Assembly: GCF_021155765.1 (NCBI RefSeq)
Contig: NC_060110.1
Span: 18,312,001-18,376,000, forward strand
Length of the DNA stretch: 64,000 nucleotides
Origin: Diprion similis
Taxonomy: Eukaryota; Arthropoda; Insecta; Hymenoptera; Diprionidae
Direction of reading: 5' to 3'
Every line of letters begins with the position of its first letter. The first letter of the stretch is position 1. Below are positions 3,138 to 32,824 of the stretch, in pieces. Under the pieces are notes generated by a model. It made no database searches and was not told the DNA's origin. It was given only the letters and a program-made list of their open reading frames with translations. A program made the translations under genes and the position numbers.

Positions 3138-6100
3138 TTACATATCCTTGCATAGGTCTTCGAAACGCTCGGGAATAGGGTAACGAGCTTGCGGCGAGAC
3201 CGATAGTAATGGATCGTCATCATTGTCATTATCAACTTTGAATTCCTGGCACCTGTCGGTATATAATCGTTTACGGATTGAGCGATATACGGTTGAATTT
3301 AACAACGCTAACGACCCAAGTTATATGCTGTTACTAACCGGACAACGAAGTAGCGTTGATATTGGGCGATTACATTTTGAGATACGGTTATAATATGATC
3401 TAGAGCGAATATGAATGCAGGATTGCGATAGTCACGCGCATACTCTTCTTTCTCTTCGTTAGATTTCGACTTTTTCAAGAGAGAACGGAGTTGCGGGGTA
3501 TCGACCCAAATTACTTTACTGCCTTCCCTTAGCATCTGCTCAGTCCATCCGATGGGGCCCATAGTCGCGATCGTATCAGCATCTTCTTCCGACTGCAAGT
3601 CGTGAACCTGTAATCCACGCAATTGAAGCCTTTACACGTTATTTGGATGGTGATTTCGTTTCGTGGAATTTCAAGGATATACGGATGTTTCTGCCGGTGG
3701 AAATTACATACGTATCGGGAGTTTTCGGTAGAAGGCCTCGATGCCAACGTTTTTGCGCCGTTAAATAGGCAACTGCAAATACATTTTTGTAACACCTGCA
3801 TGGGAAGTTCGATTTCGCGCACGATTAAACGTGCGCGAAGTGGCCGATTCCTGCACTGGGCAGAGAGCGCGCGTTAATGTAAGTAGTACGTCAGCGTTAA
3901 GTAACATTTAAGCACCATCGTCCGAGTTAAGTGGTGAATACAACCGCGTCCGGTGCCTAGAACTCCTAGAAGCAACGTAACTAATATATACTTCTGTAGT
4001 CGAACTTCCCATTACATTAAAACAGAGCCCACAGGTTTTACAAAAAATAGAATGTGTAACTTGTGCGATTTGGCGATTCCGAACGAGTGTGAAGTATGCC
4101 GCACGAGCCGAACTTTTCGCACATGATACACAATATACTATTTACTCTTGTCAGTAAATCAGATGTCACTTTGGTGTACCATTTGCCGACGAGACATCGT
4201 TCGCGTCGGGATTCTTCACTGACCGTGAAAGCTCCTGGTATAATGTTATACTTACTCACGCCGCGCTGGCGTATTGCGCGATGAGAACTTACGTGACACT
4301 GACACTTCCGCTGTATCTCATCCCGAAAAGTTTTCATTTTATCCATGAAATCCGGTGAACTCTTCGCATACAGTAATAGAATTTCTCTCGATTTTTTTAC
4401 ATGGTTTAGTTTTATCGTTACTCCTCGCACCTGAGATGACATATGACTCGTCGATTTCTTTGCACATTTAATGACACCCCATTTCCATATGAAGTATGGT
4501 AGTACCAATATCGTAATGACACCCAGTGCTATGTAACCAATAATCCGAAGGACAGCACCCGAGGAATCCTGGTGATCCTCAGGAGGAGTGCTATTCGAAT
4601 CCCGAAAACCTGCAAATCACGAATCATATAGCTTTATCGATTACACTGGATTTAATAGAAGTCAATTTCTCGTTTGAATTTCTCACCGTGAGGGATTACA
4701 TCAAGGGTGTATGCAGATTTCCACTGTCGTAGGTCTTCGTGGGTGTGGTTTATGAAACAAGCGTCCTCGAAAATCACTGTATACGAAGAACAATACGAAG
4801 CACCCCCTCGCTTCAAATTAACCCATTCAATTTCTGCTGTCCATGTTTCATTGTGAGGGTCAGACTCGATGGACTAAATAAATGTATCATGCTCATTAAT
4901 CAGATATTATAGACATTACTTAATGTCTAATACAGATCATGCCGATTACACGGAGAACGCGGTGGTGTGCACGGCAATAATCTCACGAGTATAGATCAGT
5001 CGGGCAGTTTGATATTCAATCATCGGATTGCAATTTCGATGCCAACTTCTATTCTCTGTGCTATGCCTCTAGCATAGCTGTCGAATGATTTCAAAAGTTT
5101 GTGTGCGAAAATATGAAGCAGCAAAGCTTTATCAAGAACATCGATTTTCGACGTTATTTGAACCAACGTCTAAGAGCCTGGTGAAAATATTCAATCTAAA
5201 TAAGTAGGAAGGTACTTGTTTCATGAAACTTTACTGACAGTGAACATTTCACGAAAGTCAAAAGCATTTGGAGACTTATACTGACGTGTCCTATTAAGGA
5301 TGAACGTATCAAATTAATGCCAAAATTACCCTCCTTTCCTCTATTCCTCTATACTAGCATTTTTATTCTGGGGAAATATAAAACTTACTCGAATTTCAAG
5401 ATGAATGGCTTCGGTTTTATTCCCACTATTGCGTGGACTCTAAAAAATATGAAAACTGCTTCACTGTGCTATAAATTACATTATTCATTCAAAATATGAT
5501 TCACGTAGTCTGCGGGAATTAATTTTTTTGGCAGCAGTAGAAAAAATCGCTGAAACGGTGGAAGTGTTGACAATAATTCAGCACGGACCATATCTTTCGT
5601 TTAAAAAATTATACTTCCTTGAATATTTACGCAAGAATTGAATGTGATAGCAGTTCTCCGTTACCTCTATGGTAAAGGTGTGACTATGGGTTGGATCACC
5701 TGGGCACTTTTCTTTGGTACTGTCATTTACAGCTCCAGTCAATTCCCACAGATAAGTTTTTATTCCGAGACATTTTAATGGTACTCTTAGCTTGACAAAA
5801 TGTGCCCTGTTCCTAAAGAAACGCAGAAAAAATATTTTGTTGCACACAGATTGTGAGGTGATCTTTATTATCTACAAAGTCTTACTAAGCTATACAACAA
5901 TAAGCGATATAACTAATGTGGTGTGCATTCCAAATGGTTATTCAATTCTTTACGCCTTACGATTCTGAATCCTCGGGGGTGAATCCGCTATTGCTGCACA
6001 TCATGCTTGTGTCATTGTAAGGAATCGCCGTCTGGTAAAAGGAGGGGCCTTTCATCCAATTTTTACCTTCTTTGTTTGTCAGTTGGATGTAATAACAGCC

Positions 6101-8815
6101 GGTGAATATTTTATTATACGAATGATATTGATGTCGGCTTTCATTCTGAAGGTAAATCGTTCATTCTCTTGTGAGTAAAATTCGGTAATGATGTACGATT
6201 CACACTTTGAAATAGACAAATTTCCATGCGGTGTGAGTTAATTTACAACTATAAAAGTTACCTTGTATGATACAGACTTCCCTCTGACATATTTGACAAG
6301 ATAAGGTAGACTTGTATTTGGTTTATCTGCCGGGCAATCCGCTTCCTTGTCAATAAACGGATGGGCCAATAGCGAGATATTAAGATCTTCTTGTATATTT
6401 TCAAACTTTACTTCAAGTTCTAAAATTCGACACCCCAAAGATTCCATTATTATTACAATTAAAAAGAGTGTTGAGTACGAAGTAATCATAAAAACAAATC
6501 AAATAAAAAGAAACATCACTTGCCAAATTTAACTTAGTCAAACTAACTTATTTTCATAAAATTATCCCAAAGAATCTTACGGTCTGGAACAGTTGGATTC
6601 ATACGTTGCGTGACGGCAACTGGCGGATCAGTTTTTTCCCACAGAACAGTCATCTGTAACAAGTATCTAAAATGATTATACGATTAATCGCGCTGATCTC
6701 TAAATATATATTTCAGTTTTTGAATCACACTTCCATCGTATGCAACCATAAAAAAAAATCATTTTTTTGCCACCCTGGTATCGTTTATTTATCGAAATTC
6801 CTCTTCATATAATATTTTTTGACATACTTTACGGCTGATTCATCACCCGGATAGAAGGATTCGAATGATATGACACCGAAAAAAAAAGATGTGCAGCATG
6901 AGCGATTGAAGCCCAACATATCCGAAATATGTCTATATTACGCAGGATTTCAGGCGCTCAATCAAAATGGAGTTCGTGAAAATTCGTTTTAATTTTAGCT
7001 CACACTAGAAGTCACCGAGAATTCTCAAAAGTATGCACGGTTTTCGCGTTTTCTGACTCACTAAGCTGGACTAAAGTGACCGTTTTCAGACCGGCGGACA
7101 AAACAAATATGTACTTCCGACTCAACCATAGAGTTAACTTTTTTGACCTTTTTGAAAAAGCAAGACGAAAGTGGCATATTTTTGCCGCCTAACTTTTTTC
7201 CCACTAAATGCGGGAAAAATGAGATAGTGGGAAAAAAGTTCACTTTTTTCCCGTAAAATGGGAACATGATGGAATAATTATACGATAAAATATGATAAGG
7301 ATGATGATGACGATGACGATGACGATAATGATAATGATGATGAAAAAGAATATTCTTAAGTGGGGAGGCGCCGCACCCCCAACCCCCCGGTGGGGGCTTT
7401 GCCCCTACACCCCACCAGGTCTTGCGGCTCTGAACCCGCTCCAAGAATAGTCTCGAATGTTAGTTTTAGAAAAGATCGATGGAGGATGTGGAATGAGGTG
7501 TGGGAGAAATTCTTGAACACAAAAAAGTGAAAAAAAATGTGCAACACATACATGGGGTCTCTGAAACTCAAAAATTTTTTCGTCATTTATATATTACTTG
7601 CACAACCATGATTCAAGCTTGCCGACTTCAAGTACGTTAAAGTCGGTATTGGGGTCAAATAGATTCCAATGAGGTGTTGGGGTCAACTGGAGCCCAGTAA
7701 GGAAAACGAAAACAGCAAACACAAACTGCCCAAAAAGGGCGCCACCTGCTCGCACTGCGGTCGACATAGAACACTCAGCTTCTGTGCGTGAGTGATTCCC
7801 ACTTTTTGAGTCAATGATGTGGCCAGAGTTGAGTCGGAAATAAAGTCCTATATGTAACACAGGAATAAAAGTCGACTATTCCCGTGTTACATAATGTATT
7901 ATTATCAATATTTTCAAGAAAAGGATTAATAATTGAGATAAAATATGTTTATGTATACTTATAACGTGTTCGGAATTGTGAAGAAAAAAAATCCACACAT
8001 GGGTTACAAAAAAATTTGTTGTGCACCAAGGGCTAAGCGGGCTTTTCAACCTCGTGTGGTTGCAGTACTCGCCTTCGACTCGTACTGCAATCTCCACACT
8101 CGTTTTAAAAGAGCCCGCTGTACGAGAGAGAGATATAGCCCAAATTATTGCCGAATTTTCGTCTACACCGTTTGATCGTGACAAAATGTGAAACTCAAAT
8201 TCACATGCTGGAGCGCTTATATGGAAGATGCAATGAAGTATTGTATTTTTAGTTGAAAATAATTAGTTGAGAAGACGTAAGTCGAACAACGAAGTACTGG
8301 AACCACAGATATCATATTCGAGAGATCGCATAAAAACTTTGACTCGCTGTGCATCGCCTAGTTAAGATAAGATTCGGCGGGGTGTAGTGCGGTTAGCGGG
8401 AAAGGCCGACAGCGGCCAAACCATCCTCCTCAGTTCCTTTACAACGCCAAAATTGGTTTGGACCCCTTAGTGATCCCGAAGTTCTGTCTCTTTTTGTGTC
8501 GCTGATTGTCGCATCGAATGCGGCAATTATGCGTACCAAATATGTCGAAATCTTTATTCTGTACGTCCAATCTGGACTAGATCCACAAAATTAGCGAGTG
8601 ATACTGGTTGAATAACAAGAGTTGCGATTCTCGCGTTGTGCTCCGGCGTGCATTGGTTCGCACACTAAGAAAATCATGTAAAAGAACATCAAAACACCAG
8701 CAACATTATGTTAGTTACGTACGATGTGTTTATCACACGCAGTATTGCGTGCACTAGTAGAGACTGCACTAGCGTAGATGATACAGCAAATGGAGACGAC
8801 AAATAACGACGACAT
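3138..8815 (-). CDS. IL-17 receptor-like protein with SEFIR domain, copy A
   Basis: Predicted single-pass receptor of 514 aa. Nine coding exons: 8815-8723, 6653-6581, 6419-6262, 6145-5961, 5812-5665, 4873-4687, 4609-4293, 3607-3339, 3252-3138. All have GT/AG borders, and the phases 0,1,0,2,0,1,0,2 keep one frame. The start is the ATG opening a signal peptide (MSSLFVVSICCIIYASA). Residues about 20-298 are a Cys-containing ectodomain with N-glycosylation sequons. About 299-322 is a membrane span (VLRIIGYIALGVITILVLP). From about 356 to 477 is a SEFIR domain: EILLLYAKSSPDFMDKMKTF, then KCQCHVHDLQ and KVIWVDTPQ. In known IL-17 receptors SEFIR recruits CIKS/Act1-type adaptors by homotypic contact; that role here is inferred. 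The tail ends in FEDLCKDM. Neighbours B and C are paralogues on the same strand. Family call is firm on SEFIR motifs plus architecture; no ligand is known. Confidence 0.85.
7282..7345. repeat. GAT/GAC-type microsatellite
   Basis: Impure trinucleotide and hexanucleotide run of GATGATGAC units in intron 1 of receptor copy A, inside the segment that is absent from copy B. Confidence 0.8.
8037..8118. repeat. Short hairpin repeat in intron 1 of copy A
   Basis: The arms GCGGGCTTTT and AAAAGAGCCCGC enclose inner arms GTGTGGTTGCAGTAC and GTACTGCAATCTCCACAC, so about 80 bases fold into one stem. The same hairpin is present in copy B at 22394-22475. It may be a tiny MITE or a structured intronic element. 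Confidence 0.6.
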
Positions 8816-11800
8816 ACTTGCGGCGAAATGCCACGTGGATTCCAGTAACAGTTTGATGCTTCGGAAACTATATGTTATAGTGAGTGTTTACACGAGTCAA
8901 GCGAAAACTGTGTTGAACTGTCGGTGATTTTCATCATTGACAAACTAATTACAAACTGACATGAGATGTTACACGTCACAGCAAAGGTGAGATACATTTT
9001 CTATTCATCATAAACTGGACTTCATTAACGATCCAAAGGTTTTCACAAGTTTCACAAGTTTAACACTGAGGCCTCGTTTTCAGAAAAGTTTTGCGAAGCT
9101 ACGAGTAAATTCTGCCAATTCAACTTATTTCGTTGCCCATTTTAACGGCACTGCGGAGTATGTATAGTTTACAATTTCGCACGTATATGTATATATGTGT
9201 GTACTCCCCACTCGAGCGCCACGACGATATTTTAGGAGAAGGGAGCTTTGGAAAACATTCACTCTGGTCAGTTGTTTGAATACTTTTATTGTAACTATAG
9301 GATTTGTGTCACTGTTAATACTAGATTTTTAAGTCGTAGTATTGGGCCAAAATTGTCCCCAGCAAAATGACAACTTTCATGGTAAGTTGCTGCACGAGTA
9401 TTTTAACGTAGAACATTAATAATTAAAACGTTGTACCTCGTATAAGCGCCAGAAATTGCTTATGTAAAGCTCAATGATGTGCGTACTAAAGTTTTTTGGT
9501 GTCAAGTCTGACACCGAGGAAAACGAAAAATTACACTTCTGAGGTTGTAAATGCAAAAATGATGTTCTTTCATAATGATCAACACCATTATAAGTATTAG
9601 GATGGTCTCCTTATTTAGGGTGTGGACTAATTTTTTTCATGTCGATCTTCAAATCGACTCCAAATAATTGAAAAGTGATTCCCGAATTTCTTTCAAACTT
9701 TTATCTCAACTTCTCAAGGTTTTCTACAAAGCTTTTGTTTCGCTATAACAATAACATGGAATTTTATGATCACTACACATTTTAATTTTTTTCCTCGGGA
9801 AAAATTTGAATCAAGCGACGATTTTTCAAGTATAATTAAGTCTTTTCGAGTATATTTTTGTTCTGATAGCTTCACTTTTTCAATTTTTACTCGTATATTA
9901 TACTTGACAAATCCTTGTTTGATTTATATTTTTGTCATGAAAATCTTAGGAGCACAAAAATACAATCTAAAGTGATCATAAAATCTCGTGGGGTTTAGTG
10001 TAAATTGCAATTTCAATTTTTGACAACAAACACCGCCAGGAAGTAGATAGGATTAATCAGTTCTGGTGTGCCACAAGCGGCCACGAGATGTCAGCTCCAC
10101 TATTTTCTGCTACAGTAAATATAAAGCTGAAGGACGTAATAAGTTTAACGGCTCATCCCAAGTTACCTATATGGTGAATCACACGGTCACCCCTTTGGGT
10201 ACATCGTCCGAAAATTCCTAACGGATTGTGAAACACGATGGAACAGCAATGTGGTAAATGTTCAAATCGAAGTTTGCGAATCCGTCTCTCTTCCGTCTCA
10301 AATCCGATCTTGAAAATCGGTGAACTTTTTGGGAAAATTTCAGAGTTCAGAATTCGTTAATTCGGTAGGAATTTATCCTTAGGGGGTCATTTTGAAAGGA
10401 AAGCTTTGATCCCTCGGGTCCATAAATATTTTATTCTTTAAAACCTGAATTTTTTAAAATTTACGCTAGGTTAAAAAAGGTAATCGAATCCAACAGTTTA
10501 CTGTACACGTTTTTGAGAGTTAAAAATCTTGCAAAGGGGTTGAAACCCGGCAGAATTTGATTTTTCGTGTCAAAAAATGAAAGACGATACTTTCACCTTT
10601 GAAATGAGGTTTTTTGAACCGTCTTCCGGTGAACGGGTCGTTTTTATGGCCGCTCAAAGTTGTCTCTATGTTTTTTGAGAGAAAATTTAACAACTTTCCA
10701 AAAAAAAAAACATCGCGGCTCGACCATCAAAACCGCGTTTTGAAGAGAAATTCTGTTGGTTTTGGAAACAACTTGGTTTTCATCGAGATTCGATGACAAA
10801 ATTCATTTTCCCCGTACATGACCTCAAAGTTGACACTTCCTATCCGGACAGTTACAGGAAATATGTAAAGCAATTATTCATCAATGGAAAATATGTTTAC
10901 TGCAGTTTTTAGTTGAGTTTGAAAGAATGTTGTTTACTGTTGTGGCGAACAAGATAGAGAGATATTGTTGGGTGTGACGGTCAGTTTAAACGACACTCTA
11001 CATGTAACAAAAGAACTGATATTGATAATTTAAGCAATTTATATGCTCTTCTGTTAACGATGTAATTGGATGATGATCAATTTCAAAATTTCGATTTTCG
11101 ACCATCTACTCAAATCGGTACATAACCATTAACTGGTTCCGGAGTCTTTTTGTTCAGAATTGTGTATAAAACGGGGCTGTTGAGCTCCTTTTGCGTCTAA
11201 AACACGTGGACTTCGATATCTGAAGATATGTACAACAACGTTAAAATCGACCAGGGCATCCCCTTAAAAAAACTACAATGGAGTCAAAATGTAAAGTAAA
11301 GTGGGGTTTCCTACCCTCCAAATTTAACTAATTTAATTCGAAAACACGTGGTCGTACAATTTTAACCCGTGGAACTTTATTCTTGGTTCTAAGTATATAA
11401 TAAAAATAGTCAGTAAGCATATAATATTGTTACGGAACTGAGGATGGCTGACGATGCCCAACGAAAACATTTTGATCAAATAAATTAAAGTTTATTTTGA
11501 AACTGACCGTTACACCTAACAATATATCTCTATCCTGTAGATTTTTGAACAATGAAAGGACGTAAATTTCATAACGTATTTATCACACCATAAAAAATAA
11601 GCAACCACACAAACTGATGCTGAATATGGACAACGGATATTGCTATCTCCAAGGTTACACTAGACTTATCTACAAACCCAGATATTTTTTATCTTTGCGG
11701 AACAGCATCCGGCGGACGCGGTATCTCGCTCAAACGAGCAGCCGCGTCACGGTTTTCAAAACCAACTTTATCGCAACACAATTTCGGTTTCACTCACTCC

Positions 11801-14024: not shown

Positions 14025-14245
14025 TCGCTTCACTCCAGGAGGCATCGAATCACAGCTGTAACAGAGAAACCGATTATAATTATTGTTTTCCTCAGTGGGA
14101 GTAATGTAAATTGACTTGCTGATTGGTTCACATTAAAAACTGTTGAATAACGAAACAGAAGAATCATGATATCATCCTATAGAATATGCATCGTTTGAAA
14201 ATCTTTCGTTACAAGAGTGACAGTGGAAATTCAACTTAAAATGTC

Positions 14246-17200
14246 TTACATATCCTTGCATAGGTCTTCGAAACGCTCGGGAATAGGGTAACGAGCTTGC
14301 GGCGAGACCGATAGTAATGGATCGTCATCATTGTCATTATCAACTTTGAATTCCTGGCACCTGTCGGTATATAATCGTTTACGGATTGAGCGATATACGG
14401 TTGAATTTAACAACGCTAACGACCCAAGTTATATGCTGTTACTAACCGGACAACGAAGTAGCGTTGATATTGGGCGATTACATTTTGAGATACGGTTATA
14501 ATATGATCTAGAGCGAATATGAATGCAGGATTGCGATAGTCACGCGCATACTCTTCTTTCTCTTCGTTAGATTTCGACTTTTTCAAGAGAGAACGGAGTT
14601 GCGGGGTATCGACCCAAATTACTTTACTGCCTTCCCTTAGCATCTGCTCAGTCCATCCGATGGGGCCCATAGTCGCGATCGTATCAGCATCTTCTTCCGA
14701 CTGCAAGTCGTGAACCTGTAATCCACGCAATTGAAGCCTTTACACGTTATTTGGATGGTGATTTCGTTTCGTGGAATTTCAAGGATATACGGATGTTTCT
14801 GCCGGTGGAAATTACATACGTATCGGGAGTTTTCGGTAGAAGGCCCCGACGCCAACGATTTTGCACCGGCAAATAGGCAACTGCAAATACATCTTACCCG
14901 CTGTCAGCAAATCAGATGTCACTTTGGTGGCATTTCACGTGAAGCGGACAACAACAAAATTTTGCAGTTTTGAAATTTATTCACATTCGACCTGATTGTA
15001 CTTCTAGAAAGTATGAACGAAAACACCCATTTTTTTCTTACGTTTAGTTGTCAAGTTATGGCCTACAGAGAATAATATAATTATTATAAAAACTAAAATA
15101 TTAAACGTTGTAGTTTACATAGTAAATTTACTTTATTTCTCAATTATGAAATCAGATTCGGAATTTGATTTTTTTTTCTTGTAAAACATCGGAGGTAAAA
15201 ATTTGAAACAGGAATTTTACTAACTTCGACCATTTTTTTTCCCCTAAATTTCAAAATATAGCCTAAAGTATGTAAATAATACACTAAAAGTTTCAAATTC
15301 GGATCCACGTTAATTTTGGAGATAGACGAACTAGGGTACATCCGTGTCGCACTGACCGTGGTACACTGGTGGCTGGTTCAGGCGGAAAGCATTAAAACGC
15401 TGCTTGCGACATTAAATTTGCTAACCTGTTTAGGTGTATTCAGGCTCTAACAAGGATGTACGATAGATAATTTTCAAACTTTAACATAAAATGTACAATT
15501 TTGATCAAAAATATTAGTAGGAATCAATAGTAAGAAGTAATCATGCGATTATACAAATGGACGGAATCATCTTCGACGCAAACTGCCATTTACTACTGCG
15601 CCAAAGATGATATTCAACGTCAGCGGATTTTCGTGCAATACCGATTTGATTCTGCAATCACCGTTCCAAGAAGTAAAATATTGCACGGCTTCATTCTATC
15701 AACCGAAAAATTTCTTAAAAAAAGAATTAGTTCTAGCTTTGTTTCTCATAATGAAATTGTATGAATTGTACAAAACAAATGGTTTTCCTTCGTTACAATG
15801 TTGTTTTGTTTAATCAAGGATTGCGATTAAACATATATATACAATTATACAAAATTACTTTTGAAATTTAAAGTATTTACGCCTACGTAGATGATATCGC
15901 AGCAGTTTTACTAACAATAAGTATATATATGTTCTTTTTTCGCGCACACCAGCCGACCTGAGCAAGCACCAGCCGCCAGCATCAAGGTCAGTGCGACAGG
16001 TACGTACCTTAATTCATCTATCTCCAAAATTAATGTAGATCCCATATTTACATGCTTCAGGATATATTGTGAAATTAAACAAAAAAAAATGGCGAAGTTA
16101 GTAATATTCCAGATTGAAATGTTTACTTACAATCTGAGTTCATAATTTAAAAGTATAGAATATTTCATATGTAAACCACCATAATTAACATTTGATAGTA
16201 AATTTGTTCAATTCGAAAAATTGCTTCCAAAAAATCCGTATTTCAATTAGGTCGATTCTTCAGAAGCCCATATCTTGAAAACTAAACATAAAAAAATAGG
16301 TGTTCACATTCGTACGTTCTAAACGTGAAATTCCGCTTCACATAAAATGCCCATTTGGCGAGACATCGTCCGCGTCGAGACTCTTCACTGGCCGTGAAAG
16401 CTCCTGGTATAATGTTATACTTACTCACGCCGCGCTGGCGTATTGCGCGATGAGAACTTACGTGACACTGACACTTCCGCTGTATCTCATCCCGAAAAGT
16501 TTTCATTTTATCCATGAAATCCGGTGAACACTTCGCATACAGTAATAGAATTTCTCTCGATTCTTTTACATCGTTTAGTTTTATCGTTACTCCTCGCACC
16601 TGAGATGACATATGACTCGTCGATTTCTTTGCACATTTAATGACACCCCATTTCCATATGAAGTATGGTAGTACCAATATCGTAATGACACCCAGTGCTA
16701 TGTAACCAATAATCCGAAGGACAGCACCCGAGGAATCCTGGTGATCCTCAGGAGGAGTGCTACGCGGATTCTGAAAACCTGCAAATTACGAAACATGCAG
16801 CTTTATCGATTAGACTGGATTTAATAGAAGTCGATTTCTCGTTTGAATTTCTCACCGTGAGAGATTACACCAAGGGTGTATACATGGTGCCACGTCGTTA
16901 AGTCATGGTTGCCGTACTTTTGGTTACAATTTCCCACATACAGTTTATATGTAGAATAATACCAAGCACCCCCTCGCTCCAAATTATTCCATTCAATATC
17001 TGCTGTCCATGTTTCATTGTGAGGGTCAGATTCGATGGACTAGATAAATGTATCATGCTCATTAATCAGATATTATAGACATTACTTAATGTCTAATACA
17101 GATCATGCCGATTACACGGAGAACGCGGTGGTGTGCACGGCAATAATCTCACGAGTATAGATCAGTCGGGCAGTTTGATATTCAATCATCGGATTGCAAT

Positions 17201-20200
17201 TTCGATGCCAACTTCTATTCTCTGTGCTGTGTGAATATTAGGCATAAAGAGAAAGAGAGGAGAAAGAGCAAGAGAGAAGAAAGAAGAAAGAAAGAGAAAG
17301 AGAAAGAGAAGAGAGAGAGGAAAGAGAGAAGGGAGAGAAGGAAGAATTCGGACGCAGAATATTCGAGTTAGTGGATCTCGATCCTCCGAGCCACGGGGAT
17401 CGAAGCTTCTTCCGACTATCCACAATTTTGACACACGAAGTTGCAACGACGTGGGCCCGTAATATTATTATCATCGACAACCCATTGTGCAGTCTTGCAT
17501 TCCTCACCGTGCTGCAAAGATCTAGTGAGTGTCGCAAGTGGGTGCTTTCCCCTGAATCGACTGGCGGAGGAGCTCATCAGCGGCCCGATAAGCGTCACCG
17601 ATAGAAGTGACGATAATACGACAGTGTATCTCTCTCTTCTCTTTAATTCAACGGACAATTCTTCGCCTATTTATACCTGTATCTGACACTTCGGTCACCC
17701 CTTCTTTTGTTGTTTCTGTTCAATGCTCAGATAAGATCCGTATTAAATATCATTCCTTTAAGAAACATAAAAATCTTACAGTGCTATGCCTCTAGCATAG
17801 CTGTCGAATGATTTCAAAAGTTTGTGTGCGAAAATATGAAGCAGCAAAGCTTTATCAAGAACATCGATTTTTGACGTTATTTAAACCAACGTCTAAGAGC
17901 TTGGTGAAAATATTCAATCTAAATAAGTAGGAAGGTACTTGTTTCATGAAACTTTACTGCCAGTGAACATTTCACGGAAGTGAAAAGCATTTGCAGACTT
18001 ACTGACGTGTCCTATTAAGGATGAACGTATCAAATTAATGTCCGAATTACACTCATTTCCGTTATTCCTCTATACTAGCATTTTTATTCTGGGGAAATAT
18101 AAAACTTACTCGAATTTTAAGTTGAATGTTTTCGTTTTTTTCCTTACATATGAGCTTACGTCGACTCTGAAAAATATGAAAACTGCTTCACTGTGCTATA
18201 AATTACACTTTTCATTCAAAATATGATGCAAAAATGTTTGAAAAATTGTACTATCTTGAATATTTACGCAATAAGTGAATGTGATACTGGTTCTCTGTTA
18301 CCTCTATGGTAAAGGTGCACGTTTGGGTTGGGTCTAGTTTATTAATTTCAATCTTATTTTTGGTACTGTCAGTTACGGGTTCAGTGAACTTCCACAGACC
18401 AGCTGATACTGTGTAACATTTTAATGGTACTCTTAGCTTGACAAAATGTGTTACGGTCCTAAAGAATCGCAGAAAAAATATTTGATTATACACAGATTGT
18501 GAGGTGATCTTTATTATCAGCAAAGTGAGCCAGTCCACCAATTATCAACGAATGATCTAGACGTCAAAGAATTGATTTTTCTGAAGATTTGTTCTCTTTT
18601 AGAGTGTACTAAGATTGGAAAGTCCACGAAGTTTTAACCTTCTAGGACTCACCGTTCGCCAGAAATGCGACATCAAAGTTTATCATTTTGACCTGACTCA
18701 GGTTTAAGTGCAAACTATTTTCGTATCGTTACCGGCATAAAAAAATTATAAAAAAATATGTGTCTCATGTGAAAAACTCTTGAATTTTCGAATATATTAT
18801 TCATTGTTGGATAACTTTTTGAAATCAACTTCAAAAACACGTTATTTGGCAAAAAACCGCTTTTTCTCATACGCCGCCAAAATTATCTTACTTTTGTGTT
18901 TTTCATGTGAAAAGTGAGATTTTGTCAGTAAGGAACCCAAATTTTCAGACTGAGATGGCCATGGAATCTCACGTGAGACACGTTTAATTGATAAAAGTCT
19001 GTTGATAATATGCTCTTTTTCAAATTTAGCAGGATATTTTTATTTCTTAGATGACAACGTTGGTTTTTAACCCGTTGCATTCGTATGCATTGCACACGTA
19101 GAAAAAGAGATGCTATTTATGTTGTATTTGAAGTATTGACTTGAATCTTGCGCCAAACTCCAATTTAGAATCTCTTCTAAATAATTAGACAGGTGTTTTT
19201 TTATTTGAGATTTAAAAGAAGTAAAAAAATCGATAAGAAACAAAAAGTAAAAAAATTTAACTTTTTCACAAATTCGTAGAAATTTCAATTTCTGCAATAT
19301 CGTAAATACATTATGCCATTTCACGCGGAAAACAATTTATTTCTAAGTAAAAATTAGAGCTTTAATGAACTTTGAAAAAAGTATATTGATCTCGGAAGTT
19401 TCAAGTTACGAATTTTGGAAAATCTCTTGAAACGACAATGGTACGTTCATACATGCTAAATGATGTAAAAAAAAAAGTCGTTCTTGACGTAAAATAGCCA
19501 CAAAATTTCCCTGGGGTTCAACTTTCATCAATTAAACGTGTCTCACGTGAGATTTCCGTGGCCATCTCACTCTAAGAATTTGGGTTTCTCACTAACAAAA
19601 TTTCAGCTTTCACATGGAAAACTCAAAAGTAAAATAATTTTTGGCGGTGCATGAGGAAGGGCAATTTTTTGCCTAATAACGTGTTTTTGAGATTGATTTT
19701 AGAAATTTATCCAAAAATAAATAATATATTCGGAAATTTGAGAGTTTTTCACATAAGACACATATTTTTTCGTAATTCTTTTATACCGGTAACGATACGA
19801 AAATAATTCGCGCTTAAACCTCAGTTAGGTCATAATGATAAACTTCAATATGGCATTTCTCACGAACGGGACGTCGTAGACGGTTGGAACTTGGTGAAGT
19901 TTCCAATCTTAGTACACACTAGAAGAGAATAAATTTTCAGACAAATCAATTTTTTGACGTCCAGATCGTTCGTTGATAATTGTTGGATTCGCCCAAGTGT
20001 TAATAAGCTATACAACAATAAGCGATATAACTGATGTGGTGTGCATTCCAAATGGTTATTCAATTCTTTACGCCTTACGATTCTGAATCCTCGGGGGTGA
20101 ATCCGCTATTGCTGCACATCATGCTTGTGTCATTGTAAGGAATCGCCGTCTGGTAAAAGGAGGGGCCTTTCATCCAATTTTTACCTTCTTTGTTTGTCAG

Positions 20201-23150
20201 TTGGATGTAATAACAGCCGGTGAATATTTTATCATACGAATGATATTGATTTCGGCTTTCATACTGAAGGTAAATCGTTCATTCACTTGTCAGTAAAATT
20301 CGGTAATCTTGTACGATTCACACTTTGAAATGGAAAAATTTCGATGCGGTGTGAGTTAATTTACAACTATAAAAGTTACCTTGTATGAAAGATCCTTCAC
20401 TAAGTAGTATTTTACAATATTAGGGTGACTTATATCTGCCGGACAATCCGCTTCCTTGTCAATAAGCGGATGGGCTAATAGCGAGACTCTAAGATCTTCT
20501 TGTATATTTTCAAACTTTACTTCAAGTTCTAAAATTCGACACCCCAAAGATTCCATTATTATTACAATTAAAAAGAGTGTTGAGTACGAAGTAATTATAA
20601 AAACAAATCAAATAAAAAGAAACATGGCTTGCCAAATTTAACACAGTCAAATTAACTTCGTTTCATAAATTTATTCCTAAGAATCTTACGGCCTGGAACA
20701 GTTGAATTCATGCGTTGCGTGACGACAATTGGCGGATCAGTCTTTTCCCACAGAACAGCTTTCTGTAACAAGTATTTAAAATGATTACACGATTAATCGC
20801 GCTGATCTCTATATATTTGAGTTTTTGAATTACAATTCCATCATATGTAAGCACCAAAAAAATCCTTTTCTTGCCACCCTACTATCGTTCATTTATCGAA
20901 ATTCCTCTTCACATAATATTTTTTGACATACTTTACGGCTGATTCATCACCCGGATAGAAAGATTCGTATGATATGACACCGAAAAAAAAAGATGCGAAG
21001 CATGGGCGATCGAAGCCCAACATATCCGGAATATGTCCATATTACGCAGGATTTCAGGCGCTCAATCAAAATGGAGTTCGTGAAAATTCGTTTTAATTTT
21101 ATCTCACACTGGGAGTCACCGAGAATTCTCAAAGGCGACAACAGTGTCCACGGCACTAATGTTCCTGACTGGAAAAGTGGTCAAAGTAGTTCGCGGCTCG
21201 GCATAGGGTAAGCAGTAATATCTTTCATCCTAGATGCAAGATCACGACCCGACAAGAACGTTTTTGTAAAGCATGCATGTATACTTACTCGGAATTCGAT
21301 TGTAGAGTAGGAGGCAAAATGAGCCAACTAAAAAAAAAACTATGGAAAATAATTATTCCATCTGACTTTTTTTTCTCGTTGTGAATTTTAAATAATTAAT
21401 TTTTCCCCATTTATTCAAATTACATATTTTGAAAAAGTTTTCAATTCTAATGAACTATTTGAACCTATGAATTGTTATATGTTCCATATTTTTTGTTTTT
21501 TAGCTGGCTCATTTTTCCCCCTACTCTACAATCGAATTTCGAGTAAGTATTAATTAATTGCCTGAAATTATCGAAGCTTATAATAAACCACAAAAAATAT
21601 CATATTAGATCGACAAGTTGACATTTTCAAAAATTCATAGCTCGCAAACCAGTTCTATTCCAAACTTGAAATTCTCTGGGCTGTTTAAAAATACAATGAA
21701 GTGTAATCCGTGAAAATTTCAAAGGATTTCGAGTTGGTAGAAAAAATTTATAGCTATTCAAAAACAGCGGTTTTTTTTCAGTCGATCAGCGTTTTTTTTT
21801 TCCAAAAATCGATCTACTTTATTTGGTGACGTCTCAGTGAAATGGAAGCGATCAAGCAAAAATACGGCAGATATCATCAGAATATACCTCAACGAAAAAT
21901 ATATGCCGACGACCATCCTTCGATTTCCAAAAATATAGATTTGAGAGCCTTTGAAACGAAAGGAACATTTTATTAAAATAGCAATCCAGTTGAGAGCTCC
22001 CAGCTAAGCCGGATATGAGTTTGAACTAACTATTTTTTTCTTGAAAATATAAAGTTTACAGAGAAGGATGCCATTTCGTTGGAATCTCCGGGTCATATGT
22101 AGAAGCTGAGATATAAATTTTTGAAGATGACTGACAAATCCACTTTTTTCAAATTTAAAAAAATTTTCTAGTGGCCGGATGTGAGCGTATCGAGCTCAAC
22201 TTTTCAGGGTGACCTTTTTTCTGACCTACTTTCGAGAAAAAAAATCGGCAGCCGAATGGGTGACCTACCCCCGCAGCTTTTCGGCGAAAAGTGATGGATC
22301 TGTTCATATATAATAATTATAACGTGTCTGAAATTGTGAAGTAAAAAAATGCATAGATGCATTACAAAAAATTTAGTGTCCACCAAGGGCTAAGCGGGCT
22401 TTTCAACCTCGTGTGGTTGCAGTACTCGCCTTCGACTCGTACTGCAATCTCCACACTCGCTTTAAAAGAGCCCGCTGTACGAGAGAGAGATATAGCCCAA
22501 ATTATTGCCGAATTTTCGTCTACACCGTTTGATCGTGACAAAATGTGAAACTCAAATTCACATGCTGGAGCGCTTATATGGAAGATGCAATGAAGTATTG
22601 TATTTTTAGTTGAAAATAATTAGTTGAAAAGAAGTAAGTCGAACAACGAAGTACTGGAACCACAGATATCATATTCGAGAGGTCGCATAAAAAGTTAGAT
22701 AAGATTTCGCGAGGCGTAGTGCGGTTAGCGGGAACGGCCGACAGCGGCCAAATCATTCCCCCCTCAGTTCCTTCACAACGCCAAAACTGGTGTGCACCCC
22801 CTTAGTGATCGCAAAGTTCTGTCCCTTTTTGTGCCGCTGATTGTCGGATAGAATGCGGCAATTTGCGTACCAAATGTGTCGAAATCTTTATCTCGTACGT
22901 CCAATCTGGACTAGATCCATAAAACTAGCGAGTGATACTGGTTGAATAACAAGATTTGCGATTCTCGCGTTGTGCTCCGGCGTGCATTGGTTCGCAAACT
23001 AAGAAAATCATGTAAAAGAACATCAAAACACCAGACAACATTATGTTAGTTACGTACGATGTGTTTATCACACGCAGTATTGCGGGCACTAGTAGAGACT
23101 GCACTAGTGTAGATGGTACCCCAAATCCAGACGACCAATAACGAAGACAT
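14246..23150 (-). CDS. IL-17 receptor-like protein with SEFIR domain, copy B
   Basis: Predicted 513-aa paralogue of copy A. Coding exons: 23150-23058, 20762-20690, 20528-20380, 20263-20079, 18458-18302, 17039-16856, 16778-16462, 14715-14447, 14360-14246. Intron phases are the same as in A and the frame is open throughout despite transposon insertions in three introns. The signal peptide begins MSSLLVVWIWGTIYTSA. The second SEFIR exon encodes the same residues as A; the membrane/SEFIR-start exon differs at only a handful of positions. The ectodomain exons differ much more: exon 5 shares its flanks (HFVKLRVPLKC and TFTIE) but the middle is rewritten and three residues longer; exon 6 shares WTA.IEW at the start and YTL.VI.H at the end with a different centre. 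Exon 2 begins with Lys rather than Met, showing that the upstream signal-peptide exon is required. It probably binds a different or altered ligand (inference). Confidence 0.85.
14929..16351. mobile_element. Foldback DNA element in intron 7 of copy B
   Basis: Termini GGCATTTCACGTGAAGCGGA (14929-14948) and its inverse, ending TTCACATAAAATGCC at 16351. The inverted homology continues inward for about 400 bp (14929-15355 against 15990-16351), leaving a unique centre of roughly 600 bp. The related intron of copy A (around 4140-4190) lacks it. No transposase frame is present. Confidence 0.75.
17229..17780. mobile_element. 552-bp insertion, candidate solo LTR, with 5-bp target duplication
   Basis: Copy A reads straight through CTCTGTGCTATGCC at the matching site. 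In copy B the 5-mer GTGCT occurs on both sides (17224-17228 and 17781-17785) of a 552-bp block. The block has a purine-rich GA tract (about 17240-17345) and ends in TTACA; TGTGAATATT follows its first base. A 5-bp duplication and TG...CA-like ends suggest a solo LTR, but the extra base at the left end is unexplained. Confidence 0.5.
18524..20000. mobile_element. Large foldback element in intron 4 of copy B
   Basis: The arms begin around CCACCAATTATCAACGAATG (left) and are mirrored at CGTTCGTTGATAATTG (right). They run inward about 450 bp (18530-18990 against 19530-19995), for example both holding CAATTAAACGTGTCTCACGTG in opposite orientation near 18980 and 19530. Copy A lacks it at about 5870. 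The centre encodes nothing recognisable. Confidence 0.75.
21282..21549. mobile_element. Palindromic MITE in intron 1 of copy B
   Basis: TACTTACTCGGAATTCGATT at the left is mirrored by AATCGAATTTCGAGTAAGTA at the right, and the inverted match continues through GTAGAGTAGG and AATGAGCCA, making nearly the whole 268 bp a hairpin. TA bases flank both ends, as for Tc1/mariner-type insertions. Confidence 0.7.
22394..22475. repeat. Short hairpin repeat in intron 1 of copy B
   Basis: Same hairpin as at 8037-8118 in copy A, retained in the same intron position relative to exon 1. Confidence 0.6.
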
Positions 23151-23582
23151 ACTTGCGGCGAAATGTCACGTGGATTCCAGTAACAGTTTGATGATTCGGA
23201 AAATATATGTTATAATGAGTGTTTACACGAGTCAAGCGAAAACTGTGTTGAACTGTCGGTGATTTTCATCATTGACAAACTAATTACAAACTGACATGAG
23301 ATGTTACACGTCACAGCAAAGGTGAGATACATTTTCTATTCATCATAAACTGAACTTCATTAACGATCCAAAGGTTTGCACAAGTTTCACAAGTTTAACA
23401 CTGAAGCCTCGATTTCAAAAAAGTTTTGCGAAGCTACGAGTAAATTCTGCCAATTCAACTTATTTCGTTGCCCATTTTAACGGCACTGCAGAGTATGTAT
23501 AGTTTAAAATTTCCCATGTGCCTATAGGTATATATGTGTGTACTCCCCACTCGAGCGCCACGACGATATTTTAGGAGAAGGG

Positions 23583-23993
23583 GGCAGTTCTCTAACGGTA
23601 GAGGAAAATCCAAAATTTGTAGTTTTGCATAATACCGGATGTGGGATTTCCAAGGTCACTGATAACGAACACAGATTCAGATGTTCGAAATTCAAGATGG
23701 CGAATCCAATTTGGCGGACAAAAATCCAGAAAGTTACTCCACGTAACCATGTTGGATCCACCATGATGAATTTAGAAACTTCGAGTTCAGATTCGTGATC
23801 AGTGACCTTAAAAACTCTCGAATACCAAGTTTCATCCAAATCGAATGATTTTTCGGATTCGGGTCCACCATCTTGAATTTATAAATTTCGAGTTCAGATT
23901 CGGGATCAGCGACCTCAACAACCCTGGATTCCAGAATTTTGGTAGATTCCTCCACAGCGTTTATATTTAGATTTTCCACCACCCTAAAGGTAA
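23583..23993. repeat. Dispersed AT-rich repeat family (also near 40010-40190 and 48570-48780)
   Basis: Shared wording such as TCCRCCATCTTGAATTT followed by GATCAGCGACCYCAAAAACCC recurs here (twice in tandem, near 23750 and 23870), inverted near 40110-40170 and again near 48650-48720. It has no coding function that I can see and marks an interspersed repeat family. Confidence 0.5.
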
Positions 23994-23997
23994 TTAA

Positions 23998-24578: not shown

Positions 24579-24690
24579 TTAAAATGTTGTACCCCGTATA
24601 AGCGTAAGAAATTGGTAATGTAAAGCACAATGATGTGCGAAGTAAAATTTTCGAGTGTCAAACTTAACACCGAGGAAAACCATTCAAAGT

Positions 24691-27484: not shown

Positions 27485-30400
27485 TCACAGGTGTGAACAC
27501 AATTCATCAAAATGTTCGGGTAACCGAAAACGAGTATGCGGTGAGATCACGGCAAGTGGGTCATCAGGTCCGTCAGTCACTTCGAAACCATTCCATCTAC
27601 CAACAATGGTTCAGAATATAAAGAGTGCGTATTTTTAAGCGATATTATTCCTATTGATCTACGTGTTATTGTTGGAAGTATGATTTGTGACAGAGACTAA
27701 CCGGACAATAAAGTGGTCTCGATATTGTGTGATTGGGTCCTGATATAAAGTTTTGGCTGTAGCAAGAGCAAATGGTATTGCAGTATCACGAAAATCAACT
27801 GCATAGTCCTCGTATAACTTTATACGCGACTCATCATTTTCCACGAGCAAACGGAATTGTGGGGTGTCAACCCAAATGACCTTACAGCCATGTTTTAGTA
27901 AACGGTCAATCCATTCATTGGAACCAAGTTCAACATTTAAATCACTGTCTTCGTCTGACTGCAAGTCGTAAACCTAGAACCATGGTAAAAGTATTGAGAT
28001 TATGTTGTATATTATGTTGCAATGCAAAGCACTGGACATGCTGTAATCTAGCTTTAGTATCGAAATGCTTGTTTGAAAACCTGAATCGTTATTTACTTAC
28101 AGCAAAATCCTTTACAATGAGAGGAAATATAAATAAAAGTGTTTTTATTTAAATGTTTTTAACGCCACACAAAGAATTCTATTATTTTGAAGTAGAAGAG
28201 TTTTAAATAGTAAGGATGAAACTTACCGGACAATCGCACCTTTCCTCCAACTTATCTCTGAAAGATCTCATTTCTTCTATGAACGAAGACGGACCCTTTG
28301 TGTAAATTATTAAAATTCTGTTGGGCTTTTCTTTGTACAATAGTGGATTTATTGTGTTGAAGGTTACATCATTTTCCACATTGCGTCCTCTACGTCGGAT
28401 TCTGAAAAATTTGAACATCCAAAAGAGCAATATTGATACCAAGAGAACAGCAACTGAAGTTAATGCAAGCTCATGAAGATTCCAACCAGCTTCAGGTATT
28501 TTAGCCTTATTATAACAAGCTGCAATGAAGACAGTCAAATTTATTATTTGTATCAATTCCTAGTGAGCATAATAACGTCAATATCTCACATAGCTTGATC
28601 TTCCCGAATGTGGCATAATTTTTCCATTGTCTAAAGTCTAACTGGAATTCACTACAGTTCAGCACATTCGGCATGTTTGTTTGTGAAAATTCTGGTGAGT
28701 AACAAACGTCACCTTCTTTCAGTCCTTTCCATACGACCTTAACGCTCCAGGCACCATCTGTTGAATACTTATGTTCCATCTGTGTACATTAATTGCTTCA
28801 TTTTGATTTTACAATCGCAGAAAATGATATGGAAAAATGATTCAGATAATATCATTTTTTGAAGAATATAACACTTACTGGCCACGAAAGGGTAAGGTCT
28901 GTGTCATTGTACTGGCATCGAAAAGTCAAGTTAGCCACCTATTGTATCATATCGTAAAATTTATTAAATACACATGTATATTTCATATATTATTTGACAC
29001 AAGGAATAGGCATCTTATATAATTATCAACACATCAATTGTCCTTTTGCATGATGTAACATTCTGTATACGTACGGACCGTTAGATTGATTCTGACACAT
29101 TCAAGGCTGCCCGTGGTACCTGTTACTCATGTCAAACAAGTGGTAGCTGACTACAACAGTGAGCTTAAATGTGTCAGAATCAACCTAAGGGTCTATACAA
29201 TGAATGTCAGAGTAGTCATACGTTACCATGTTCACATGGCAGATCTGCGATGGCCGTGATGTGGACATATCAAAATCACCCTCTTTTGTTGACTTTTCTT
29301 TGTCAATTTCCCACAGCATAAGATTCAATTCCATACAGGTTGTTGGTACGGTTATGGTAAAGGGTAATATTCGACTCCTGAAAATAACATTACACGGTTC
29401 TTTCCTGTATCTACTATTCTGTGTCATCTGTAACTTTGATGAAAATAAAAATTCAATATTAAACCACATATATTCCATCAAGGGACTACATAGGTTCGTT
29501 GTTGAAAATTTTCCAAGTAACATTGGAGATTGTCATTATAATAATGCATTACCTAAAACCAAGTCCTCAATCCAAGTGAAGTAAAAATTTCAATTATTTA
29601 CAGTATCAATGAAGAGGCGCTTTTTCGCAAAAAAGTCTCAATGAATTTGGCAAATAGAACTATTAGAGTAGCTTTTGTAAAATCATGGGTTCTTCAGTGT
29701 AACCACAATCAGAAATTCAGAATGAGGGGTATATTATGCAAAACTGGAAGTATGCTAGAAATAATTTTTAATCACTAGAAAAAATCTTGTTTGAATTTTG
29801 TGTCACTGAATATTTAAGATGGAAACTAAACGTAACTTAGATCGATGCAATAGGTACACCAAATAGGTGTAGCATTTATCCCATATTGAAAAGTTAATAT
29901 CACTTGCCGCTGATTAGGTTAGGCTTTAAAAAATTGCCATGCCAAAAAGTTTTTTCAAGTCGGTATGTAATTTTTTTCCACAACAAATGACAATCAACAA
30001 TGCAACCCACAAGGCACATTAGGAGAAGGGAACCCTTGCCTTAGTGTTCTGGAGATGATAAATCGATTTCTCGAGCTGTTTTTCTTCAAGAAATACGGTG
30101 GTGATAAAATGTGAATTATAAAAAATTTGGCCGCCTTGGAATTTTTTTTTCTCTACTAAAGAGTATTTAAAATCCATCCATAGAAGTTTAAAAAACACAA
30201 ATTTATGTTTGGTAAAAAAAAATCAGAACTTCAGAAAAATAATTTTTACTATGTTCTGAAGCATATTTGTCAAGAAAAGTAAATCGTTTTCTGTTTGAAA
30301 AGTACTCTAAAGACTTGTTTTCATTAGTGATTAGTAATAAAATTGTATTTATAATTCTTATATAAAATGTTAGGATGTTTGCCTAACGAAAGAATCGTAA

Positions 30401-32824
30401 TTTTTTTGAAACTTTTACACCAAATGTAAAATTATGTTCTTAAAATTCGTATGGATTGATTTTACGATGATCCAATTTGGTTCGGGAAAAAAATTTTAAA
30501 AAAGGGTTGAATTGTTTTCTTATGAATAAATAATAATTTTCATCTTATAACCATAAAATTCCTTGCAAAAATCAGCTCAAGAAATATGTTTCTCGTCCCC
30601 TAAGACTAAGGCATTGTGTCCCTAAAAAGTTGGGTGCCCCTTCCTTGAATAGATCAATTGAAGCTCACGTTTCAATGGCCACGTTTGAAACATCTTCATA
30701 ATGGCATTTCAAGGTTGGATCATGAACAGGATGCGTGGTATTGTAAAAATATGGACCCCACAACCAACTTTTTTTTTTTTCATTTCTCATCACGAAGTAA
30801 TAACAGCCAGTAAATATGTCAATAAACGTACTACTAGCAGGTACATCTTTCTGAAATGAAAAGATAAATTGAAATAAAAACGAAATTAAAAGTACAAACT
30901 AAAAAAAATTAAAATCTAGTATTAATGATTTTTTGTCTACAATGAGACGTCATTCGAGTATTATGTAACGCTATTTTGTTACCTTTTTTGGCCCGCTCCC
31001 CAACAGTAGCACATAGTAACGTTTGCGTAGTCCCCCCCCCCCAAGATTTTACTATAATTGTTATATGTACAGCTACACAATCTAAATTACCTACTTTTAT
31101 AGACATTGATGAGTCCTTTGCATTAGGAATATTTTGGAGCAGATTAACATTTTCCCTAGGATCACAAGCACATTCCTTCTTATTCTTCACATGTGGTATC
31201 GCTAGTAAAATAAGTTGGAAATTTTCTCGTGGCATCGATACATTCCAATCAATTCCTTAAGACAAATATAAAAATAATGAATTTTATCACTATATAAAAT
31301 GAAATATTTCAATACTGAATCATTAATCAAGGTATAATTCACATATTCATAAATACAATTGGCAATTACATTACAACAATATCTTTATCCACTAAATAAA
31401 TGTCATACCAGGAAAATTTGGAGATAGTGTGGACCGCTGGTGCTGAAGCCAACTAGGTGGCTCAGATGACTTGGGTTCATAGTCACACTGATTAATTTGG
31501 TTCAGATTTGCCGAACTGGAACGATTGTCAAGTTTAAGATACACACATTTACGGTTTGATGGACTGAAGTCCCACTCTCGCCAAGTCTAAAACAAGTAAT
31601 CATGTCATGATAGATATTTATAAATTGGATCATTACAGCTTTGGACAAAAACAAATTATGGAAAACTGTTTCACAACTCTCAGGACCTATTAGATTCAGT
31701 ATGAAATTGGTCTGATCACAATTTTTATGTATGGGACATTCCACGCCAATTCGACCTCACTTTTACTTTTGACCTCTCAAATTTGGCACCTCATTTTTTC
31801 TATGATTGTTTTTACTTTGAAAGGTACTCTGTTTTTTTTTTCTCTCTCGACTGAATTTGAATTTTCTACAATTTTTATTAACGTTTATATCGACCAACCC
31901 AAATTAAAAATTTGAAAAAATTCTGAAAAATCCTGCACCAGATATCAAAGTTTTGAAGCTTGGAACCGGAGTGGGCCAATTTTCCCTTCTTACTGTTTTC
32001 AAGCTATTTCTGAAAAAAAATTTCTAAAAATTCAAAGCCAAAGTCATTTTACTATGGATGGTTGTTGAAACATTTTTATGTCACATCAGATTTTTGAAAA
32101 AAATTTCAGATTTTTGGAACCATTTTACCGTTTGCAATTTCTTTATCAGCAAAATGATAGGAAAAAAAATGTCTTGCAAAAAATCGGAAAAATTTTTCAG
32201 AAATCCAATGTGACGTATAAAAATGTTTCAGCAACCATCTGTAGTAAAATGACTTCTACTTCTAATTTTTTTAACGTTTTATTCTCGAAAAAAGCTTGAA
32301 AATAGTAGGAAGGAAAAATCGGCCCACTCCGGATCCAAGCTTGAAAATTTTGATATCTGATGCAGGATTTTTCAGAATTTTTACAAATTTTTAATTTTGT
32401 TCAGTCGATAAAATCGTTTTCAAAAACTGTAGAAAATTCAAATTGAGTTGAAAAAAAAACCGAGTACCTTTCAAAGCGAGAACCTTCATAAAAAAATCAC
32501 GCGCCAAATCTAAAATGCCAAGGGTAAAACCCTTGACTGAAGAATATTCTTCAGTGAACGGTAAAACCCAGGTCGAATTGGCGTGGAATGCCGCATATAC
32601 ATAATAACGGAATAAATTGTGCTGTAGAAATACCAAAGTATGCTGCGTATGAAAATTGACATCTTGTGATACAATTATTTTATATAAATTTGAAGAATAG
32701 AATTTAGAAATTGAAATGTAAATACATTATTTTGTCTAGTTTCGTTGGTACATCCTACATCAGCGCACTCGCGAAGAATTATCCAAAAAATCCAGATGAC
32801 AGCAGTCAAATTTCTCTCACTCAT
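27485..32824 (-). CDS. IL-17 receptor-like protein with SEFIR domain, copy C (diverged paralogue)
   Basis: Predicted 545-aa receptor. Exons: 32824-32726, 31586-31409, 31255-31095, 30850-30669, 29377-29227, 28779-28590, 28519-28227, 27973-27702, 27596-27485. Every intron phase matches copies A and B. The signal peptide is MSERNLTAVIWIFWIILREC. The ectodomain spans about 25-338 with paired Cys, the membrane segment about 339-358 (TSVAVLLVSILLFWMFKF), followed by a basic stop-transfer RIRRRGR. SEFIR runs from about 388 to 508, with RILIIYTKGPSSFIEEMRSF, RCDCPVYDLQ and KVIWVDTPQF. The tail ends PEHFDELCSHL, parallel to PERFEDLCKDM of copy A. Exon 2 is longer than in A/B (59 against 24 codons), adding N-terminal ectodomain. 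Only the SEFIR exons and tail are easily alignable, so the duplication is older. A foldback element lies in intron 1 and a small MITE in intron 5. Confidence 0.85.
29066..29199. mobile_element. Small palindromic MITE in intron 5 of copy C
   Basis: TAGATTGATTCTGACACATT on the left is mirrored by AATGTGTCAGAATCAACCTA on the right, within about 134 bp, and GTATAC/GTATAG-like ends are also inverted. No coding capacity. Confidence 0.65.
31727..32602. mobile_element. Near-perfect palindromic foldback element in intron 1 of copy C
   Basis: CATTCCACGCCAATTCGACC near 31736 is mirrored by GGTCGAATTGGCGTGGAATG near 32590. The inverted match continues (ACTCCG, ATATCAAA, CATTTTAC) almost to a centre near 32165, so about 870 bp could fold into one stem. 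No transposase frame was seen. Confidence 0.7.

What the first reader, a model, noticed from the sequence alone, without database searches (positions are those of the whole stretch)
3138..32824. Tandem cluster of three IL-17-receptor-like (SEFIR) genes in an apparent insect
Three complete genes with signal peptide, ectodomain, single membrane span and SEFIR domain lie head to tail on the minus strand, all with nine coding exons and the same intron phases. SEFIR is the hallmark of IL-17 receptors and their Act1/CIKS adaptors. I recall no IL-17 receptor in Drosophila, so an expanding cluster in another insect would be an overlooked cytokine-receptor system, possibly immune.
Basis: partly seen in the sequence, partly recalled or inferred. 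Interest (0 to 1): 0.88.

Follow-up and report, generated by a model that had tools for sequence, protein, structure and literature searches.

The report
Three tandem IL-17-receptor-like genes
An animal genome, perhaps an insect's, carries three neighbouring genes for likely cell-surface receptors with the inner signalling domain of interleukin-17 receptors, and the two youngest copies differ mostly in parts of their outer half; what they bind is unknown.

Summary
The observation largely holds. Three head-to-tail minus-strand genes (A 3138-8689, B 14246-23041, C 27485-32824) each encode an ectodomain, one membrane span and a short cytoplasmic tail; signal peptides rest on tentative first exons. 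Spliced A and B match Pfam SEFIR above its cut-off (32.4 and 30.8 bits against 23). C has no SEFIR hit of its own but is homologous to A over 458 alignment columns (E 3e-67). Exons 3-9 share splice phases in all three; exons 1-2 are tentative, and the exon 1/2 phase differs. A and B are a recent tandem duplication. Their differences lie mostly in ectodomain exons 3, 5 and 6: 101 of 481 sites, against 14 of 1079 in the other exons. dN exceeds dS there, but not significantly. Best reading: IL-17R/CFSH-receptor-like cytokine receptors with diverging ligand-facing halves. Insect identity, ligand, expression and an immune role are untested. Papers seen call IL-17 absent from insects, apart from one Drosophila report, so this is a useful test case, not a new kind of system.

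The parts
3138..8689 (-). Gene A, 523 aa. Exons, 5' to 3' on minus strand: 8605-8689 (start and signal peptide, tentative), 8100-8207 (tentative), 6262-6419, 5961-6145, 5665-5812, 4687-4873, 4293-4609, 3339-3607, 3138-3252
   Evidence: Splice sites and translation; homology to C; SEFIR 32.4 bits
3138..3607 (-). Gene A exons 8-9: second part of SEFIR and C-terminus; identical in A and B, intron 8 included
   Evidence: Pfam SEFIR
4293..4609 (-). Gene A exon 7: membrane span and first part of SEFIR
4687..6419 (-). Gene A ectodomain exons 3-6; exons 3, 5 and 6 are the divergent ones between A and B, exon 4 differs at 3 of 185 sites
14246..23041 (-). Gene B, 528 aa. Exons: 22939-23041 (tentative), 22457-22564 (tentative), 20380-20528, 20079-20263, 18302-18458, 16856-17039, 16462-16778, 14447-14715, 14246-14360
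   Evidence: SEFIR 30.8 bits
27485..32824 (-). Gene C, 545 aa. Exons: 32726-32824 (tentative), 31409-31586 (tentative), 31095-31255, 30669-30850, 29227-29377, 28590-28779, 28227-28519, 27702-27973, 27485-27596
   Evidence: 138 of 458 alignment columns identical to A, E 3e-67; no SEFIR hit of its own
2918..9246 (.). Copy 1 of the tandem duplication (gene A plus flanks)
   Evidence: blastn pieces of 78.7-97.9% identity to 14028-23585
14028..23585 (.). Copy 2 of the tandem duplication (gene B plus flanks, with several longer introns)

Best explanation
Genes A, B and C encode single-pass type I receptors of the IL-17R/CFSH-receptor kind. A secreted ligand, most likely an IL-17-like cystine-knot protein, would bind the ectodomain and bring receptor chains together; their cytoplasmic SEFIR domains would then recruit a SEFIR adaptor of the Act1/CIKS type and change transcription. 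C is the older paralogue. A and B arose by a recent tandem duplication, after which the membrane span, SEFIR tail and much of the introns stayed or were made alike (gene conversion or purifying selection), while ectodomain exons 3, 5 and 6 moved apart, so A and B probably differ in ligand specificity but signal alike. Shown here: the layout of exons 3-9, the SEFIR match of A and B, homology of C, the duplication and the exon-concentrated divergence. Inferred: signal peptides, ligand, adaptor, dimerisation, signalling output, selection as the cause, and that the host is an insect.
For: SEFIR in Pfam 32.4/30.8 bits over profile positions 1-149 of 150, cut-off 23; spliced tail of A 36.6 bits, exact reverse no hit; no TIR model listed. 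Two PDB sequences matched A's tail at E up to 10; the better is the IL-17 receptor B chain 3vbc, at a weak E of 0.25, sharing 6 of 9 letters in IATMGPIGW/IAEMGPVQW. Conserved phases at the six junctions of exons 3-9 and A-C homology E 3e-67. A/B divergence: exons 3+5+6 101/481 against the other six exons 14/1079; exons 5+6 79/332 against the ends of introns 4-6 25/340, p 2.4e-9. A crab and a shrimp SEFIR receptor of the same layout bind CFSH in pull-downs (PMC10418988, PMC10604874; passages).
Against: The ectodomains of A and C match no Pfam family at E up to 10, so fnIII modules were not seen. C's tail alone has no SEFIR hit, and its 38 PDB matches hold no IL-17 receptor (calcium-channel subunits, antibodies, beta-lactamases and others). 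The three-sequence SEFIR profile ranks 3vbc only 15th of 19 (E 0.64), behind mostly designed ankyrin proteins, the best at E 0.00018 from many weak repeats. The full-length profile finds nothing relevant (2 matches). The exon 8 model is unusable (mean pLDDT 46). dN > dS in exons 5-6 is not significant (0.322 against 0.202, p 0.21), nor in exons 3+5+6 (p 0.28). No ligand or adaptor gene was recognised in the window by a loose motif scan, and the genome is not held.
Confidence: 0.68

Rival explanations
1. They are orthologues of the crustacean CFSH receptor with an endocrine (sexual or reproductive) rather than immune role.
For: A crab and a shrimp use SEFIR receptors for the IL-17-like hormone CFSH (PMC10418988, PMC10604874; passages). 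Veenstra left open whether insects have an orthologous system (PMC4888303; passage).
Against: No crustacean sequence could be compared here. A young tandem duplication with divergent ectodomain exons is, from general knowledge, more typical of immune or conflict genes, though hormone receptors can also duplicate.
Confidence: 0.35
2. They are immune receptors: an IL-17-like cytokine axis in barrier defence, with A and B diversified under pathogen pressure.
For: Tandem expansion and ectodomain-concentrated divergence. IL-17 acts early in the gut response to Vibrio in sea urchin larvae (PMC5457136; title, abstract start and one passage seen).
Against: No expression data; dN/dS above 1 is not significant.
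Confidence: 0.35
3. A and B differ by short segmental gene conversions from another, more diverged paralogue, not by selection on the ectodomain.
For: dS is also raised in exons 3, 5 and 6 (0.19-0.22). In 30-base steps the differences peak inside exons 3 and 6 and taper towards their ends, rather than stopping at the splice sites, as short tracts could do. Intron ends beside exon 5 are raised too (7/66 and 10/66), and the first 60 or so bases of exon 7 hold most of its changes.
Against: Three separate tracts, all in ectodomain exons, are needed, with low divergence next to them (0/66 before exon 3, 1/66 before exon 6, 1/38 after exon 6). No further copy that could be a donor was found in the window: the 6 tblastn hits outside the modelled exons at E up to 5 are weak, best E 0.044.
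Confidence: 0.35
4. A and B are two haplotypes placed in tandem by an assembly error, so there are only two genes.
For: High identity and identical exons 8-9.
Against: Aligned intron pieces differ by 0-15%, several introns differ greatly in length, and exons 5 and 6 differ by 25% and 23%, which is far for alleles; about 4.8 kb between the copies (9247-14027) has no match in the other copy except about 100 bases.
Confidence: 0.07
5. One or more of the genes is a pseudogene or makes a soluble decoy.
For: No transcript data; exons 1-2 of A and B are uncertain.
Against: Exons 3-9 are open with GT-AG introns in all three copies, and exons 7-9 differ at only 8 of 701 sites between A and B.
Confidence: 0.1

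Closest known systems
Crustacean CFSH receptors Sp-SEFIR and Lvit-IL-17R (PMC10418988, PMC10604874; passages read)
   Same: Signal peptide, ectodomain, one membrane span, SEFIR tail; arthropod
   Different: 652 and 625 aa against 523-545 here; 288 aa intracellular in Lvit-IL-17R against about 190 in A; sequences could not be compared
Vertebrate IL-17 receptors A-E
   Same: SEFIR tail in A and B (Pfam); A's tail shares a short motif with IL-17RB (3vbc)
   Different: Ectodomains of A and C match no Pfam fnIII model; in A and B the SEFIR match reaches the last residues, so there is no long C-terminal extension
Act1/CIKS adaptors
   Same: SEFIR domain
   Different: Act1 is a cytoplasmic adaptor without a membrane span or signal peptide (recalled); A-C have a membrane span
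Toll/TLR and other TIR receptors
   Same: Same domain superfamily and receptor topology (recalled)
   Different: No TIR model and no leucine-rich repeat was listed for A, B or C

Membership tests
IL-17 receptor family | Cytoplasmic SEFIR domain (genes A and B) | tested here: met
   A 32.4 and B 30.8 bits against cut-off 23
IL-17 receptor family | Cytoplasmic SEFIR domain (gene C, on its own) | tested here: not met
   No SEFIR hit for C whole (E up to 1) or its tail (E up to 10); C is included only by homology to A
IL-17 receptor family | Single membrane span | tested here: met
   One strong internal hydropathy peak in each of 3 proteins
IL-17 receptor family | N-terminal signal peptide | tested here: inconclusive
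   Rests on tentative exon 1; hydropathy peak passes the cut-off in B and C, not A; no dedicated predictor was run
IL-17 receptor family | Extracellular fibronectin-III-like domains | tested here: inconclusive
   No Pfam hit for the ectodomains of A or C at E up to 10; spliced ectodomains were not folded
IL-17 receptor family | Binds an IL-17-family ligand | not testable with these tools
   Needs binding assays and the genome
IL-17 receptor family | Signals through a SEFIR adaptor (Act1/CIKS) | not testable with these tools
   No genome held
Crustacean CFSH receptor orthologues | Groups with crustacean SEFIR receptors in a tree | not testable with these tools
TIR-domain receptors | TIR domain | tested here: not met
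   No TIR family listed for A, B or C
Act1/CIKS adaptors | Cytoplasmic protein without a membrane span | tested here: not met
   Strong membrane span in A, B and C

The most novel reading that the evidence does not exclude
Some insects keep a working IL-17/CFSH-type axis that the literature calls lost, and here it is in evolutionary conflict: a tandem receptor family whose signalling tail is homogenised while three ectodomain exons diversify to track changing ligands or pathogen mimics.
Probability: 0.3. Interest if true: 0.8.

Novelty: new member of a known kind. Interest (0 to 1): 0.55.

Why it matters
Papers state that IL-17 is absent from insects (PMC4517768, PMC5457136; passages) or report a single Drosophila protein with the domain (PMC8353272; passages), and the crustacean IL-17 homologue is a sex hormone whose insect counterpart was an open question in 2016 (PMC4888303; passages). 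Receptors with a SEFIR tail in an insect would make that question testable by RNAi and ligand binding. The A/B pair is a natural experiment: almost the same signalling tail behind two different outer halves. The value depends on confirming that the host is an insect.

Tried and rejected
Chance ORFs: rejected, because exons 3-9 recur in three copies with matching splice sites. TIR receptor and Act1-type adaptor: rejected. Kbp-5 (PF20883), listed, is below its cut-off (11.8-16.5 against 31.1 bits) and was rejected.

Exon 2 of A and B: tblastn with C exons 1-2 against the A and B upstream regions gave short matches only, the best E 0.033 with a stop in it; I treat them as chance. By the phases, exon 1 could also join exon 3 directly in A and B, giving eight exons; I could not decide.

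Structure: only contiguous exon 8 pieces of A and C were folded; confidence was too low for a fold search, and none was run. A search of viral contigs for relatives of exon 8 found 12 pattern matches and no relative. No Rfam family at gathering threshold and no tRNA in the window. A motif scan of 98 Cys-rich frames of at least 45 aa printed 12 with a loose motif, some overlapping these genes, and I saw no convincing IL-17 ligand; the 98 were not run against Pfam as a set. NCBIfam gave nothing above its cut-offs.

Papers: ten searches in an open-access library. 'SEFIR' with 'insect' gave 16 papers, of which I read passages of 6; no title or abstract start among the 16 is about an insect SEFIR receptor. 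'IL-17 receptor' with 'Hymenoptera' gave 0 papers. Several other searches held more papers than they listed. Subscription papers and sequence databases were not searched. I recall, without any call, that public databases probably hold unnamed insect SEFIR proteins.

Full report
The window carries, on its minus strand, three genes in a row. Read from the sequence and assembled, they are A (3138-8689, 523 aa), B (14246-23041, 528 aa) and C (27485-32824, 545 aa). Exons 3 to 9 have matching splice positions and phases in all three: 0, 2, 0, 1, 0, 2 at the six junctions, with a phase-1 entry into exon 3. All introns in these models begin GT and end AG. Exons 1 and 2 are less secure: exon 1 ends in phase 1 in A and B but in phase 0 in C, and the A/B exon 2, with a weak donor, is not among the candidates printed.

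The cytoplasmic end is a SEFIR domain. The open frame around exon 8 of A scores 22.9 bits against Pfam's cut-off of 23; spliced A scores 32.4 and B 30.8, covering profile positions 1-149 of 150; A's tail alone scores 36.6 and its exact reverse nothing. C has no SEFIR hit, yet aligns with A over 458 columns at 30% identity (E 3e-67) and shares A's KVIWVDTPQ block. In PDB, two sequences matched A's tail at E up to 10; the better is IL-17 receptor B (3vbc), at a weak E of 0.25. Against this, C's own 38 PDB matches hold no IL-17 receptor, and a three-sequence SEFIR profile puts IL-17RB 15th of 19, behind mostly designed ankyrin proteins. All three proteins have one strong membrane span; an N-terminal hydrophobic peak passes my cut-off in B and C but not A. 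The ectodomains of A and C match no Pfam family.

A and B are a young tandem duplication that includes flanking DNA (2918-9246 against 14028-23585). Their differences are unevenly spread. Exons 8 and 9 and the intron between them are identical, and exons 7-9 differ at 8 of 701 sites. Exons 3, 5 and 6 differ at 101 of 481 sites, the other six exons, the two tentative ones included, at 14 of 1079. The ends of introns 4-6 differ at 25 of 340 sites against 79 of 332 in exons 5 and 6 (p 2.4e-9). The sequence just before exon 3 differs at 0 of 66 sites, just before exon 6 at 1 of 66 and just after it at 1 of 38. In 30-base steps the differences peak inside exons 3 and 6 and taper towards their ends, while around exon 5 the intron ends are also raised (7/66 and 10/66). 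In exons 5-6 dN is 0.322 and dS 0.202, but this is not significant (p 0.21), and for exons 3+5+6 p is 0.28. I therefore call this exon-concentrated divergence. Selection on the ligand-facing part, with the rest homogenised by gene conversion, is the reading I prefer; short conversions from an unseen paralogue are not excluded.

How it probably works: ligand binding outside, SEFIR-SEFIR recruitment of an adaptor inside. In mammalian IL-17RA, helix alphaC of the SEFIR domain is needed for binding Act1 (PMC4014126, passages). In a crab and a shrimp, SEFIR receptors of the same layout bind the IL-17-like hormone CFSH in pull-downs, and their knock-down changes sexual-differentiation genes (PMC10418988; PMC10604874; passages). 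This makes an endocrine role as likely as an immune one. No ligand or adaptor was recognised in the window (loose motif scan), and the genome could not be searched.

Comparison with what is in print: IL-17 genes were reported absent from insects (PMC4517768; PMC5457136), then one domain match was reported in Drosophila and none in Apis (PMC8353272). Veenstra asked whether insects have a counterpart of the CFSH system (PMC4888303). I found no paper on an insect SEFIR receptor in the searches, which cover open-access papers only; some of these listings were capped, and I read passages of only some listed papers.

Verdict: a real cluster of SEFIR receptors (C by homology) and a new member of a known kind.

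Noticed in passing
18526-18998 and 19521-19995: Inverted pair, 84.6% alike over 475 bp, in the part of gene B's intron 4 that has no match in gene A's; looks like a mobile element with long terminal inverted repeats.
   Followed up: partly
13433-13783, minus strand: Cys-rich open frame of 116 codons between genes A and B, no Pfam match.
   Followed up: partly
36876-37607, minus strand: TGF-beta type I receptor-like frame: GS motif and kinase in Pfam; open frames further upstream may be its other exons (not tested).
   Followed up: partly
43308-43885, minus strand: Two open frames with WD40 matches, Rae1-like by recall.
   Followed up: no
44686-45384, plus strand: NTP_transferase frame, like mannose-1-phosphate guanylyltransferase alpha by recall.
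   Followed up: no
48106-50051, plus strand: XK-related gene, two open frames with Pfam matches.
   Followed up: no
58001-60000: G+C rises to 0.534, against 0.32-0.43 in the other 2-kb steps, with low-complexity frames; possible CpG-rich promoter region.
   Followed up: no
39970-40110 and 41016-41159: Inverted repeat pair, 74% alike over 147 bp.
   Followed up: no
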